Shown here: in pieces, positions 9,093 to 14,312 of the stretch
Position numbering within the stretch: position 1 is the first letter of the stretch
Layout: the number at the start of each line of letters is the position of its first letter
DNA from: a virus
Direction: 5' to 3' (one strand)
DNA length: 64,000 nucleotides
Virus record (IMG/VR): IMGVR_UViG_3300047548_001122
Coordinates: 150,238-214,237 of that record
Notes under the pieces: generated by a model
The model's database searches: none
Told to the model about the DNA's origin: nothing
What the model saw: the letters and a program-made list of their open reading frames with translations, nothing else
Made by a program: the position numbers and the translations under genes

Positions 9093-9384
9093 GTATTCCA
9101 TAGATTATAGGGATGAAAATACCTATTTTACCATACTTGATGGTAAATATCAAAACGTCACCGTAACTTACTCGCAAACCCAATTCTTTGAAGATGAGGG
9201 TTTTGCGAGGTTAAAATTCAATTATAATGTCATAGATTCTTCAACATTTGCCTTAGAACAGTTGACAGACGATCAAGAATTTGTTATAATGTTAGGTGAT
9301 ATCTTACAAGACTACATTCTAGTGAAGGCAAAAAATCTTGAAACAGTTAGAGACAGTAATTCTGAAGAACTTGATTTTCAATGA
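9070..9384 (+). CDS. Hypothetical protein between uvsX and helicase
   Basis: A 104-residue protein without recognised domain; begins MKKQQSPKYSIDYRDEN. The frame is open from 9028, but the ATG at 9070 is preferred because it reduces the overlap with uvsX to 23 bases. The position corresponds to a small gene often found between UvsX and gp41 in cyanophage-type genomes. Its 3' end overlaps the helicase start by 47 bases. Confidence 0.65.
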   Translation: MKKQQSPKYSIDYRDENTYFTILDGKYQNVTVTYSQTQFFEDEGFARLKFNYNVIDSSTFALEQLTDDQEFVIMLGDILQDYILVKAKNLETVRDSNSEELDFQ

Positions 9385-10744
9385 AGAGTATACCCGTAAA
9401 GTATTTCCTTTCATAAAACACGAATATTTTTCAGATAACGTACACAAAAAATTCTTCAATGAAGTAAAACGTTTTATTGAAGAATATAAAACTCCTCCTA
9501 CCTACGAATCACTACTCATCGATTTTACCGAATCTAAAAGATTAACACAAACCGAAGTGAACGGTTGTGTTGATTTGTTGCGTGAACTAAATTCAAATAA
9601 GAATGAAAGTTCCGAAATGGAATGGCTGATTGACCAAACAGAAAAGTTTTGTCAAGATAAAGCAATCTATAATGCAATCATGAATTCGGTCAGTATTCTT
9701 GACCAAAGTGGTGAAGATAAGAAATCTAAAGGTGAGATACCTAAACTTCTCAGTGATGCATTGGCCGTATCTTTTGATAATCATATTGGTCATGATTATG
9801 TAAATGATTTTGATGCACGGTATGATTTCTATCACAAACAAGAAACGCGGATTCAATTTGACCTTGATATCTTTAATAGGATTACCAAAGGTGGTCTTCC
9901 AATTAAAACTCTGAATATCGCACTTGCTGGCACAGGCGTTGGTAAATCTTTGTTCATGTGTCACGTTGCCGCATCTTGTATATCACAAGGTAAAAATGTT
10001 TTGTATATTACACTTGAGATGGCCGAAGAAAAGATTGCAGAACGTATAGATGCTAATCTTTTGAATGTAGACTTGAATGAGTTATATACTTTGACTAAAG
10101 ATGATTATGGTCGAAAGTTTAATCACCTGAAAACCAAACTCAATGGTAAATTAATCATCAAAGAATATCCGACTGCATCGGCATCAACACTTCATTTCAG
10201 AGCTTTGTTGAATGAATTGCAATTGAAGAAGAATTTTAAACCTGATATTGTGTTTATCGATTATCTGAATATTTGTTCATCATCTCGTATTAAACCTGGT
10301 GCGAACGTGAATAGTTATTCTTATATCAAAGCAATTGCAGAAGAACTTCGTGGTCTTGCAGTTGAATTTGCTGTGCCTGTTGTTTCTGCTACACAGACAA
10401 CTAGAAGTGGTTTTACAAATACTGATCCTGGTCTAGAAGATACTTCAGAATCTTTTGGTCTGCCAGCAACAGCAGACTTTATGTTTGCTTTGATTAGTAC
10501 TGAAGAACTTGAACAGTTGAATCAGATTATGGTGAAACAGTTGAAGAATCGTTACGGTGATCCAAATCATTTCAAACGATTCGTTGTAGGTATTGATAGA
10601 GCTAAGATGAAATTGTATGATGCTGAACCTGATGCACAGAATGATATTTCAGATTCAGGTCAACCAAATGATACACCTCCATTAAATACATTTGGTAATC
10701 GTGAGAGTAAATTTAACAAAAACTTTGGCGGAATTAAAGTATGA
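9338..10744 (+). CDS. 41: Replicative DNA helicase (gp41, DnaB-like)
   Basis: Hexameric 5'-3' helicase that unwinds DNA ahead of the fork and pairs with the gp61 primase (39106). It has a DnaB-type RecA fold: Walker A GTGVGKSL at about residues 198-205, an ITLEM segment near 224-228 and Walker B IVFIDY near 304-309. The N-terminal ETVILKNLIFNEEYTRKVFPFI matches the T4 gp41 N-terminus, which supports the TTG at 9338 as start even though it overlaps the previous gene; GAAGG lies about 10 bases upstream. Length of 468 is close to T4 (475). Confidence 0.93.
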   Translation: MKQLETVILKNLIFNEEYTRKVFPFIKHEYFSDNVHKKFFNEVKRFIEEYKTPPTYESLLIDFTESKRLTQTEVNGCVDLLRELNSNKNESSEMEWLIDQTEKFCQDKAIYNAIMNSVSILDQSGEDKKSKGEIPKLLSDALAVSFDNHIGHDYVNDFDARYDFYHKQETRIQFDLDIFNRITKGGLPIKTLNIALAGTGVGKSLFMCHVAASCISQGKNVLYITLEMAEEKIAERIDANLLNVDLNELYTLTKDDYGRKFNHLKTKLNGKLIIKEYPTASASTLHFRALLNELQLKKNFKPDIVFIDYLNICSSSRIKPGANVNSYSYIKAIAEELRGLAVEFAVPVVSATQTTRSGFTNTDPGLEDTSESFGLPATADFMFALISTEELEQLNQIMVKQLKNRYGDPNHFKRFVVGIDRAKMKLYDAEPDAQNDISDSGQPNDTPPLNTFGNRESKFNKNFGGIKV

Positions 10745-11856
10745 GTTTGAATAAAGATCAAGCAATTTATTGTGCGAATGTATTCTCAAACTATTTCGAT
10801 AGATTCGAAAGAATAGATGAATACATGCGTGAACAAAAGTTGTCATCTATGTCAGAGAGGTCACCAACACTTTTTGGTATGGGACCTGAAGATGATTTGT
10901 TTTCAGACTTCACGGTTTCACCAGAAAAAATGAACTTTGAAGTTGTCGAACTTTCGCAAGAAAAGTGGGACATTTATTTGAATATGATTTCTTCTCATTC
11001 AAACATGACAAGTATTCCTGGTCGCTGCTTGAGATTGGCTGTACTAGAAACTACAACCAATAAATGGTGTGGTTTTATTAGACTAGGTTCGCCAGTAATT
11101 AATTGTAAACCTAGAAATGAAATGTTGGGTCAAGTGTTCACTCAAACTGAAGGTGGCGCACAGTTATTTAATCGATGCGCTATCATGGGTTTTGTTATTG
11201 TACCTGCACAGCCATTTGGTTATAATTACCTTGGTGGTAAATTGATGGCTGCGATTTGTACTACACATGAAGTACGTGAAATGTTGAACAAGAAATATAA
11301 CATGACAACTTGTTTGTTTGAAACAACCAGTTTATACGGTTCAACTAAGGCTGTATCACAATATGATGGCATGAAACCTTATATTCGATACAAAGGTTTG
11401 ACAGATAGTGATTTTCTTCCTATGTTACATGGTAAAACATACACCGATCTAAAAGAATATATGGAAGAAATTATTGGTGAACCACTCGCACCAGAAGGTG
11501 CTTCTAGTCGTAAACTAAAGATATCAAATGCCATGGTGTCACATATCAATACTGCTTTGAAGGGTACACCAGAAGGTGCCAAGTTTAAAAAGACCATAGA
11601 AAATGCAAAGAATCTGAACGAACAAAAGCGTTACTATGTTTCAGATTATGGGTTTAGTAACATGGTTGACTTTGTTAATGGAAAAACAACTAAACTGATT
11701 GCTGGTGAAAACTATGAAAAGTTTCATTTGAAAAACATAATTGAGTGGTGGAGAAAGAAAGCCATTAACAGATTTGAAACGTTAAAGACTGAGAATAGAC
11801 TTAGGACAGAGATCGAAGTCTGGACAGGCGAAAAAGAGATTGACATTATTCGGTAG
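10741..11856 (+). CDS. DUF4338-like protein
   Basis: A 371-residue protein resembling the DUF4338 family, which includes DruA of the Druantia defence system. Visible hallmarks are the segments LRLAVLETTTNKWCGFIRLGS, FGYNYLGGKLMAA and FETTSLYGSTKAVSQYDGM. Homologues occur in aquatic T4-like phages; the biochemical role is unknown to me. It is tightly linked to the helicase (ATGA overlap), so it is expressed with replication genes. Family assignment by memory of motifs, not by search. Confidence 0.65.
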   Translation: MSLNKDQAIYCANVFSNYFDRFERIDEYMREQKLSSMSERSPTLFGMGPEDDLFSDFTVSPEKMNFEVVELSQEKWDIYLNMISSHSNMTSIPGRCLRLAVLETTTNKWCGFIRLGSPVINCKPRNEMLGQVFTQTEGGAQLFNRCAIMGFVIVPAQPFGYNYLGGKLMAAICTTHEVREMLNKKYNMTTCLFETTSLYGSTKAVSQYDGMKPYIRYKGLTDSDFLPMLHGKTYTDLKEYMEEIIGEPLAPEGASSRKLKISNAMVSHINTALKGTPEGAKFKKTIENAKNLNEQKRYYVSDYGFSNMVDFVNGKTTKLIAGENYEKFHLKNIIEWWRKKAINRFETLKTENRLRTEIEVWTGEKEIDIIR

Positions 11857-11865
11857 TCCTGATAG

Positions 11866-11873
11866 GATAAATA
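11866..11873 (+). promoter_or_regulatory. T4-type late promoter box (GATAAATA)
   Basis: GATAAATA followed by CT fits the T4 late promoter form TATAAATACT with one change. It lies 23 bases before the ATG at 11897 in the only gap between the replication operon and the next gene. The predicted start would fall around 11879-11881, inside the hairpin listed next. Confidence 0.6.
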
Positions 11874-11890
11874 CTCCATTATAAGTGGAG
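11874..11890 (+). promoter_or_regulatory. Hairpin hiding the ribosome-binding site
   Basis: CTCCA (11874-11878) pairs with TGGAG (11886-11890) across a 7-base loop. The 3' arm contains the GGAG ribosome site of the gene at 11897. Read-through mRNA from the helicase operon contains both arms and would be blocked. mRNA started at the overlapping late promoter lacks the 5' arm and would be open. Confidence 0.5.
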
Positions 11891-11896
11891 ATTTAA

Positions 11897-13081
11897 ATGG
11901 CAGGCAATGCAATAGAAACCGCGAAACAAGAAAACGGATCAAAAGTTTATTTCGAATTAGTAATAGAAAACGGAAAAGACCCGGACAAAGATTTTGCTGT
12001 TTTAGCGACAGCTGTAAAAAAAGTATATTCTAATGTAAATAATGAGTGGATGGAATCTTATGCGAAACAGGCACGAGCCTTGAAAGAATATATTGGTAGA
12101 AATAAGGGTTATGAGTACTCCCGTGATGATGGGTTTATGCCATTTATTGAAAACATTGCGAAACAAAAATGTGGTGTTTCAGTTAAAGATCGTTGGGACC
12201 CTGCTGACATTTACATGGTAAAAAAATCCAAAAGAAAAGAAATTGAAGCCAAAATAAAACAGATAACATCCACTCCAGATAAAGATACAAACCTATTGGC
12301 ATTAAATGATTACATGAGAGAACTGATGCAATCTCTTGATATGTTACCAGTTTCATTAAAAGCTATTAAAAAATCCACAACAAAGGCTAAAGCTGAACCT
12401 GCGAACATAGGAGCTAAAGGTAAAAAAGTTTCTTTTGAAGTTGTTCCAGGTTCAGTAAAATGTTTATTAGATTTTGGACATAAAACTCCAAACGAATTCG
12501 ATACGGGTGAATTTGCATTTGATTTTAAAGTTGGTGATGAAGAGATTCACGGACAAGCTCGTAACTTTCAGTATTCAAAAGCAAGAAACTTAGTTCAAAC
12601 GGATTTGACACCAAAAGGTCGGTCTGGTGGTGCAAAACTTGGTAAAGTATCTTCTGAAGCATTAGATACTTTTTTAAAAAAAATTAATTTGCCAAGACCA
12701 GCATCTGCTGCCAAAGATCCAAATATTGATTTGCCTGGTGAATGGAAAAAAGAAAATATTGATTATTGGATAAAGTATATAGAAAATCTAAAGAGTGAAA
12801 AGATTGCTGGCCGACCTATTGATTTAGGTGGACTGAAAGTAAAAAATGGTAATAAAGAAACTGTGGGTGCAGAAGAAGTAATCAAAAATGCTATTATATC
12901 TGAAAATAAAACAAGAAGTTCTGCTGGTCGTTTTTCATCCAAGTTGATTGGATTAAGATGGGCTTATACATGGGCTTTAATAGAAAAAAAAGGAAAGATG
13001 GATGAATGGTTACAAACTTTATATTATGGTGCTAAAAAAGAATTTGGTGGTAAAAACGGACCATTTTTAAAAATATACTAA
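11897..13081 (+). CDS. Uncharacterised late protein
   Basis: A 394-residue protein with no domain I can name. It contains a KDRWDPADIYMV segment near residue 100, a Lys/Ala-rich linker around 155-180 and a second half with FDFKVGDEEIHGQARNF. Similar proteins occur in cyanophage-type genomes beside the ligase-like gene that follows. A late box and hidden ribosome site upstream suggest late-only translation, so a virion or assembly role is possible. The following gene starts two bases after its stop. Confidence 0.65.
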   Translation: MAGNAIETAKQENGSKVYFELVIENGKDPDKDFAVLATAVKKVYSNVNNEWMESYAKQARALKEYIGRNKGYEYSRDDGFMPFIENIAKQKCGVSVKDRWDPADIYMVKKSKRKEIEAKIKQITSTPDKDTNLLALNDYMRELMQSLDMLPVSLKAIKKSTTKAKAEPANIGAKGKKVSFEVVPGSVKCLLDFGHKTPNEFDTGEFAFDFKVGDEEIHGQARNFQYSKARNLVQTDLTPKGRSGGAKLGKVSSEALDTFLKKINLPRPASAAKDPNIDLPGEWKKENIDYWIKYIENLKSEKIAGRPIDLGGLKVKNGNKETVGAEEVIKNAIISENKTRSSAGRFSSKLIGLRWAYTWALIEKKGKMDEWLQTLYYGAKKEFGGKNGPFLKIY

Positions 13082-13082
13082 T

Positions 13083-14312
13083 ATGAAATTTTTAGACTTT
13101 TTAGTAGAAGCCAAAAATGAAGGCGCAAATCTACACCTAGAACATCTAGAAGATAATATATTTAATTTTGGTGTAAATGGTACTCGACAATCAATTGATT
13201 TTTTAAGATCATTAAGAGATATGTTAGCAGGTCATTCACAATCAAAAGTAAATATTACAACAAAATGGGATGGAGCTCCAGCTGTTATATGTGGAATAAA
13301 TCCTGAAAACGGAAAGTTTTTTGTTGGAACAAAATCTGTTTTCAACAAAGATGGTAAATTAAATTACACCGATGATGATATTGATAAGAATCATCCTGGT
13401 GGGGGATTAAATGAGAAATTAAAAATAGCATTGGCCTTTTTACCAAAACTTGGCATCAAAGGTATATTACAAGGTGATTTGTTATTTACCAAAGGTGATA
13501 TACAATCAGAAACAATTGACGGACAAAAATATATAAAGTTTCAACCAAATACTATTGTGTATGCGGTGCCAACCGATTCAGTTATGGCTAAAAAAATGTT
13601 AGCCTCTCAAATGGGAATAGTTTTTCATACTTCTTATTCAGGAAGAACGATAGATACATTGAAAGCCTCCTTCAATATTGACATTGGAAATTTAACACAA
13701 ACTAAAGACGTTTGGTTCCGAGATGCTTCTTTTGTTGATGCGTCTGGTACTGCAACATTCACCGATAAAGAAACTCAAGCAATAACCTCTCTATTATCTC
13801 AAGCAGGTAGAGTTTTTCAAACCATAAATCCTGTCGTGTTAAATAGAATATCCTCTGGAATATTTAAAGAACAAATTAAGACATTCAATAATACAAAGAT
13901 TAGATCAGGACAAAAAATAACAAATACTGGCCAACATGTTTCAGAATTAATTAAATATATTGAAGATAAACTAAACAAAGAAATACTTGTTGCAAAAAAA
14001 GAAGATACAAAGAAGAAAAGAATTGCCGAAAAGAATGAAGTGATGAGGTTCTATAGAGGAAGTGCCAATCAATTAAAATCTGTTTTTGATTTGATGAACT
14101 TAATAGTTGATGCTAAGTTAATGATAATAAGAAAATTGGAATCAATCAAATCTTCAGTAGATACCTTTGTTAGAACAGAAGATGGTTATAGAGTTACTGG
14201 TCCAGAAGGGTTTGTGGCAGTAGATAGAATAAGTGGTGGTGCATTGAAGTTAGTTGATCGACTAGAATTTAGTCAGACCAACTTTAATGCCGCAAAAAAT
14301 TGGAGCAAATAA
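13083..14312 (+). CDS. Ligase-like nucleotidyltransferase with capsid-targeting-like N-terminus
   Basis: A 409-residue protein with the motif series of the covalent nucleotidyltransferase (RNA/DNA ligase and capping) superfamily: KWDG at 61-64 (motif I, with the Lys that would carry AMP), LQGDLLF at 129-135 (motif III-like), PEGFVAV at 374-380 (motif IV-like) and LKLVDR at 388-393 (motif V-like). Related uncharacterised proteins occur in many T4-like phages. The N-terminus MKFLDFLVEA resembles the T4 internal-protein capsid-targeting peptide MKTYQEFIAEA, with a predicted cleavage after LVE. Expressed with the late gene upstream. Activity and substrate unproven; a catalytically dead member is possible. 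Confidence 0.7.
   Translation: MKFLDFLVEAKNEGANLHLEHLEDNIFNFGVNGTRQSIDFLRSLRDMLAGHSQSKVNITTKWDGAPAVICGINPENGKFFVGTKSVFNKDGKLNYTDDDIDKNHPGGGLNEKLKIALAFLPKLGIKGILQGDLLFTKGDIQSETIDGQKYIKFQPNTIVYAVPTDSVMAKKMLASQMGIVFHTSYSGRTIDTLKASFNIDIGNLTQTKDVWFRDASFVDASGTATFTDKETQAITSLLSQAGRVFQTINPVVLNRISSGIFKEQIKTFNNTKIRSGQKITNTGQHVSELIKYIEDKLNKEILVAKKEDTKKKRIAEKNEVMRFYRGSANQLKSVFDLMNLIVDAKLMIIRKLESIKSSVDTFVRTEDGYRVTGPEGFVAVDRISGGALKLVDRLEFSQTNFNAAKNWSK

What the first reader, a model, noticed from the sequence alone, without database searches (positions are those of the whole stretch)
11866..11897. Late-only translation switch: late promoter overlapping a hairpin that hides the ribosome site
CTCCA/TGGAG (11874-11890) would cover the GGAG of the gene at 11897 in read-through mRNA. 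The late box GATAAATA (11866-11873) would start RNA near 11879-11881, after the 5' arm, so late mRNA cannot form the hairpin. T4 uses exactly this arrangement for lysozyme and soc. It suggests that gene 11897, and the tagged ligase-like gene coupled to it, must not be made early.
Basis: partly seen in the sequence, partly recalled or inferred. Interest (0 to 1): 0.65.

Follow-up and report, generated by a model that had tools for sequence, protein, structure and literature searches.

The report
Late-expression RNA switch before phage gene
In an uncultured T4-like phage, a late promoter sits inside a hairpin that would hide one gene's ribosome site in early RNA but not in late RNA; the same leader is kept in about fifty related phages even where the gene behind it has been swapped, so this is a well-supported new case of a control trick known from phage T4.

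Summary
Late box GATAAATA 11866-11873, CTCCA 11874-11878, TGGAG 11886-11890 and ATG 11897 are as described. The predicted helix is longer: AAAU 11869-11872 also pairs with AUUU 11891-11894 around a bulged A. RNA starting at or before 11874 pays 5.2-7.0 kcal/mol to free the GGAG; RNA starting at 11878-11881 pays 1.1. T4 controls e, I-TevI and I-TevII score alike. About 26 of 28 distinct homologous leaders keep the hairpin. The phage encodes gp55 and gp45 relatives.

The overlapped Asp codon is GAC in 60 of 61 genes, against 28% elsewhere. Its RNA should start near 11875, inside the 5' arm, so "late only" is likely but not shown.

The gene behind the leader is hypervariable: in L075 it is replaced almost from the start codon while both flanks stay 91-94% identical.

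The mechanism is known from T4; this is a new case with an added early-type promoter. Protein functions stay unknown.

The parts
10741..11856 (+). Upstream gene, DruA-like (371 aa); its last codons carry the -35 hexamer
   Evidence: Pfam DruA E 7e-10, phrog_19197 E 4e-141
11840..11845 (+). TTGACA, -35 of a sigma70-type promoter
   Evidence: 10/12 match, 17-nt spacer, TG before the -10; overlapped Asp codon GAC in 60/61 genes vs 28% elsewhere; kept behind unrelated upstream genes in L047, L120, L145
11860..11868 (+). Extended -10, TGA-TAGGAT; overlaps the late box by 3 nt
   Evidence: TTGACA-to-TAGNATAAATA spacers peak at 17 nt, 40 of 107
11866..11873 (+). T4-type late promoter box GATAAATA; a T4-like start would be 11879
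   Evidence: gp55 and gp45 relatives in the same genome; start by T4 rule, not mapped
11869..11880 (+). 5' arm of the hairpin (AAAU, bulged A, CUCCAUU)
   Evidence: MFE fold
11884..11894 (+). 3' arm of the hairpin (AGUGGAG AUUU)
   Evidence: MFE fold
11887..11890 (+). Shine-Dalgarno GGAG, paired in read-through RNA and free in late RNA
   Evidence: opening cost 5.2-7.0 vs 1.1 kcal/mol
11897..13081 (+). Controlled gene, 394 aa, phrog_1462, function unknown, hypervariable between relatives
   Evidence: model pLDDT 84 without a PDB match
13083..14312 (+). DUF6267 gene (409 aa) with N-terminal MKFLDFLVEA tag and KWDGAPA motif; no SD of its own, 1 nt behind the stop, so probably coupled
   Evidence: Pfam DUF6267 E 2e-113; start sites of 19 relatives lack an SD too

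Best explanation
A T4-type late translation switch. In RNA that begins upstream of about 11875 (read-through from uvsX/gp41/DruA-like genes, and probably part of the RNA from the overlapping sigma70-type promoter) the late-box sequence folds onto the Shine-Dalgarno and closes the start of gene 11897; DUF6267 at 13083, which has no SD, is closed with it by coupling. When the gp55/gp45-dependent late polymerase starts at about 11879, the RNA lacks the 5' arm and both genes are translated. Shown here by sequence and folding: the hairpin, its conservation, the loss of pairing in RNA starting at 11878 or later, the late sigma factor gene, absence of a DUF6267 SD. Inferred: the late start site, early read-through, coupling, and a large effect on translation.
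For: Opening cost of GGAG falls from 5.2-7.0 to 1.1 kcal/mol between 5' ends 11866-11874 and 11878-11881. Same test: full-minus-late difference 5.7 kcal/mol, second of 13 late-box leaders in this genome, most near 0; T4 e 10.7-13.9, I-TevI 10.6, I-TevII 11.4, segB 4.1. About 26 of 28 distinct homologous leaders fold likewise. In the junction set (61 leaders, many preselected) 87% of cells pair against 35-62% when slid; substitutions inside CTCC are mostly C to U, which keep G-U pairs; L305 has a matched change, CTCA with TGAG. In other phages inner stem bases covary (38 of 54 Watson-Crick against 14.8 expected). Leader kept across swapped downstream genes and unrelated upstream genes. gp55 E 5e-20 and gp45 E 2e-26. 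No SD before DUF6267 in 20 of 20.
Against: No RNA or protein data. A conserved sigma70-type promoter starts near 11875, so early RNA from it may only partly form the hairpin. Some relatives at this junction lack the hairpin (L024, L060, L216, L272, L273) or have the start codon just behind the box (L207, L270, L303). Cyanophage homologues have a late-like box at most and no hairpin. In the single window sequence the shuffle test gives only p 0.04. Both arms are also constrained as promoter and SD, so strict two-sided covariation within the clade is scarce.
Confidence: 0.72

Rival explanations
1. Two-phase expression: the overlapping sigma70-type promoter starts at 11876 or later, its RNA also lacks most of the 5' arm, and the gene is made both early and late; the hairpin only silences long read-through RNA.
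For: TTGACA-17-TGNTAGNAT is conserved beyond coding need; opening cost is 2.5 at 11876 and 1.9 at 11877; the spacer rule puts +1 near 11875.
Against: Starts at 11873-11875 would keep 3.8-5.5 kcal/mol. The downstream gene at 14312 has its own SD, so an early promoter could serve genes further down without translating the first two.
Confidence: 0.2
2. The inverted repeat acts in DNA or in transcription (operator for a repressor, terminator or attenuator) rather than on ribosomes.
For: Perfect inverted repeats over a promoter are also what operators look like; some other phages have a U run behind the stem.
Against: Loop length varies from 5 to 16 nt among junction leaders, unlike an operator with fixed spacing; no U run behind the window hairpin and no + strand terminator call there; the 3' arm always contains the SD.
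Confidence: 0.05
3. By-product: a late promoter whose natural tail CTCC happens to complement an SD.
For: Single-sequence p 0.04 only; CT follows many late boxes.
Against: Pairing goes on past the SD into AATA/TATT; scrambled controls are more than ten times rarer; most other late boxes in the genome show no such pairing.
Confidence: 0.03

Closest known systems
T4 gene e (lysozyme) leader
   Same: Late box inside the 5' arm, SD in the 3' arm, late RNA lacks the arm; T4 e pairs AATAC of the box with GTATT behind the SD, as here. Same test gives 10.7-13.9 kcal/mol; PMC3014915.
   Different: Controlled gene is not a lysozyme; one late box instead of two; a conserved sigma70-type promoter overlaps the late box, a feature not mentioned for T4 e in the passages read.
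Hairpin-controlled homing endonuclease genes (I-TevI, I-TevII, segB of T4; mobE of Aeh1)
   Same: SD hidden in early and middle read-through RNA, late promoter in the arm (PMC2988022); T4 cases recovered.
   Different: phrog_1462 and DUF6267 show no endonuclease match here; but this phage carries such an HNH gene with its own late hairpin at L002:17414-17452.
T4 soc and gene 49
   Same: Listed in the reviews as SD-sequestered late genes within early or middle transcripts.
   Different: My local fold of the soc leader showed no SD hiding; gene 49 was not recovered by the scan.
Cyanophage phrog_1462 and DUF6267 genes (P-SSM4, S-TIM4, S-RIM2, ACG-2014g)
   Same: Same pair of genes downstream of gp41; some have a late-like box 20-30 nt upstream.
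   Different: No SD hairpin; DUF6267 has its own intergenic region there instead of tight coupling.

Membership tests
T4-type late-promoter/SD-hairpin translation switch | gp55-type late promoter box just upstream of the gene | tested here: met
   GATAAATA 11866-11873, 23 nt before ATG, conserved in all 50 homologous leaders read; gp55 homologue present
T4-type late-promoter/SD-hairpin translation switch | SD paired in RNA from upstream promoters | tested here: met
   5.2-7.0 kcal/mol opening cost; conserved in about 26 of 28 distinct leaders; prediction only
T4-type late-promoter/SD-hairpin translation switch | Late RNA starts after the 5' arm | not testable with these tools
   T4 rule gives 11879; no 5' end mapping exists for this phage
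T4-type late-promoter/SD-hairpin translation switch | Gene lies in an early or middle transcription unit | tested here: inconclusive
   Same-strand replication genes upstream, sigma70 promoter match 12/12 at 9262, no + strand terminator between; no RNA data
T4-type late-promoter/SD-hairpin translation switch | Measured repression of translation by the hairpin | not testable with these tools
   Needs a reporter
sigma70-type promoter | TTGACA, 17 +/- 1 nt, TATAAT-like -10, conserved as DNA | tested here: met
   TTGACA-17-TG-A-TAGGAT; -10 weak (4/6); codon test 60/61 GAC vs 323/1163; genome-wide TTGACA to -10 spacing peaks at 17 (24 vs about 3)
T4 capsid-targeting tag (internal proteins) | N-terminal MKTYQEFIAEA-like sequence | tested here: inconclusive
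   MKFLDFLVEA resembles MKTYQEFIAEA found in T4 at 65718 and 66415; packaging not testable

The most novel reading that the evidence does not exclude
A double-start RNA switch: an early sigma70-type promoter and a late promoter overlap so that their starts lie only about 4 nt apart, on either side of the hairpin's 5' arm. The early RNA keeps the hairpin and carries downstream genes without translating the first two; the late RNA opens them. The leader is a constant cassette in front of a rapidly swapped, possibly packaged, gene.
Probability: 0.3. Interest if true: 0.72.

Novelty: new variant of a known kind. Interest (0 to 1): 0.5.

Why it matters
It extends a control mechanism worked out on a few T4 genes to a large group of uncultured T4-like phages, with comparative evidence rather than one sequence. 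It marks a hypervariable gene pair of unknown function as one the phage keeps shut until late, a useful hint for a locus whose DUF6267 partner carries a packaging-like tag. The overlap of an early-type and a late promoter around one hairpin arm is a testable design in which a shift of a few bases in the start site would decide translation.

Tried and rejected
Inner-loop covariation inside the window-type junction: none found (9 vs 9.3 expected), so the stem there is only the box-derived arm. Rfam: no match. Idea that the DruA-like gene is a mobile cassette that carries the leader to many genes: rejected, because the downstream proteins mostly belong to phrog_1462 (others phrog_2496 and phrog_3060) and are followed by DUF6267 wherever the contig reaches far enough, so it is one locus with a swapped middle gene. 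Function of the 394-aa protein: model of good confidence (84) but no PDB relative, only cyanophage hypotheticals. DUF6267 model too poor (53) to search. TTGACA as part of the late promoter: rejected, other late boxes lack it. Papers on cyanophage promoters gave no mapped starts for this gene.

Full report
Observation. Folding shows a longer helix: AAAU 11869-11872 with AUUU 11891-11894, a bulged A, then CUCCAUU 11874-11880 with AGUGGAG 11884-11890. The GGAG (11887-11890) is inside the 3' arm.

Is it more than chance? In this one sequence it is borderline: 4% of spacer-and-flank shuffles hide the SD as well. I therefore compared. A protein search with the 394-aa product gave 52 loci. The upstream DNA of 50 of them was read with the window's; they carry NATAAATACTCC-loop-GGAGTATT-ATG almost throughout. 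Among 28 distinct leaders about 26 fold so that the SD is hidden in RNA from upstream and freed in RNA starting at the T4 late position; L024 and L060 do not, L017 and L021 do so weakly. In phages outside this junction the bases inside the stem covary (38 of 54 Watson-Crick against 14.8 expected). Within the junction itself inner covariation is absent; the stem is the box-derived arm only, and it is both promoter and SD, which limits what covariation can show. Many of the 61 junction leaders tabulated were found by a pattern that asks for pairing, so its 87% paired cells is not an unbiased figure; the protein-based set is.

Calibration on T4. The same script on all late boxes of T4 recovers e (10.7-13.9 kcal/mol), I-TevI (10.6), I-TevII (11.4) and segB (4.1), and leaves most structural genes near zero; soc is missed. 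In the window's own genome the gene scores 5.7, behind only an HNH endonuclease gene (9.4), and ahead of a neck-protein-like gene (4.5). So the arrangement is selective, not a by-product of late promoters in general.

A second promoter. TTGACA 11840-11845, 17 nt, TGA-TAGGAT 11860-11868 matches an extended -10 sigma70 promoter. It lies in the last codons of the upstream gene. In 61 such genes the overlapped Asp codon is GAC 60 times, against 323 of 1163 elsewhere in the same genes, and the codon before always ends in TT, while the Ile codons after it vary (sequences are related, so the p value of 8e-31 is overstated). In L047, L120 and L145 the upstream gene is a different one, in another frame, and TTGACA-17-TAGNAT is still there. 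The spacing from TTGACA to TAGNATAAATA in viral contigs peaks at 17 (40 of 107). The genome has a clear set of TTGACA-17-TATAAT promoters, none between 162.1 and 200.2 kb on this record, so the one at 11840 is the last early-type promoter for a long stretch. Other late boxes of this genome lack TTGACA.

What follows for the mechanism. The cost of freeing the SD depends sharply on the 5' end: 5.5 at 11874, 3.8 at 11875, 2.5 at 11876, 1.9 at 11877, 1.1 from 11878 on. A T4-like late start is 11879, safely past the arm. The sigma70 start is expected near 11875, at the edge. If it is at or before 11875 the early RNA is largely closed, and the two overlapping promoters form a switch by themselves; if later, the gene is also made early and the hairpin only silences read-through. 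I cannot decide between these here. DUF6267 has no SD and starts 1-3 nt behind or overlapping the stop in 20 of 20 cases, so it very probably follows the first gene; the next gene, at 14312, has GGAG of its own.

The locus. The slot between the leader and DUF6267 holds very different proteins: distant branches of phrog_1462, or phrog_2496 or phrog_3060. L075 is 94% identical to the window up to 11901 and 91% from 13058 on, with a 28% identical protein between: the coding part was exchanged and the leader stayed. None of these families has a known function, and the predicted fold of the window protein matches no solved structure. Conservation of the leader across such exchanges suggests that the timing, not one particular protein, is what is being kept. 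That reading is inference.

Known or new. RBS hiding with a late promoter in the arm is established for T4 e, soc, 49 and I-TevI (PMC3014915) and for I-TevI, I-TevII, I-TevIII, segB and Aeh1 mobE; the latter review notes that all are late genes lying on early or middle transcripts (PMC2988022). The window case works like these by every test available here, but start site and repression are unmeasured. The departures are the overlapping conserved early-type promoter and the constant leader in front of a swapped gene. Cyanophage homologues lack the hairpin. The literature held here is only open-licence papers, so an earlier description elsewhere is possible.

Noticed in passing
window 11902-13057 vs L075: Clean exchange of the coding part between leader and DUF6267: flanks 94% and 91% identical, middle protein 28%. 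At least three PHROG families occupy this slot in relatives.
   Followed up: partly
L002:17414-17452: TATAAATAGACACTCC-loop-GGAGTGTCT-ATG before an HNH homing-endonuclease-like gene of the same genome: a second late switch with a different stem sequence.
   Followed up: partly
L094:2406, L100, L144:2578, L066, L084:2327, L101: GIY-YIG-like endonuclease genes in unrelated phages with long hairpins around ATAAATACTCC, some followed by a U run.
   Followed up: partly
L007:16881-16908: Neck-protein-like gene (MAVPTTRTQFK...) with CATAAATACTCC-GGAG hairpin; its relative in L082:2017 has a perfect one.
   Followed up: partly
window 13083, 20915, 23656: Three proteins begin with MK-F-xF(L/I)-E tags resembling the T4 internal-protein tag MKTYQEFIAEA.
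   Followed up: partly
L009:1495-2772: Second DruA-like paralogue; it too is followed at once by a TTGACA-17-TATAAT promoter.
   Followed up: no
L207, L270, L303: At the same junction the late box is followed immediately by ATG, which would make late mRNA leaderless or use a later ATG.
   Followed up: no
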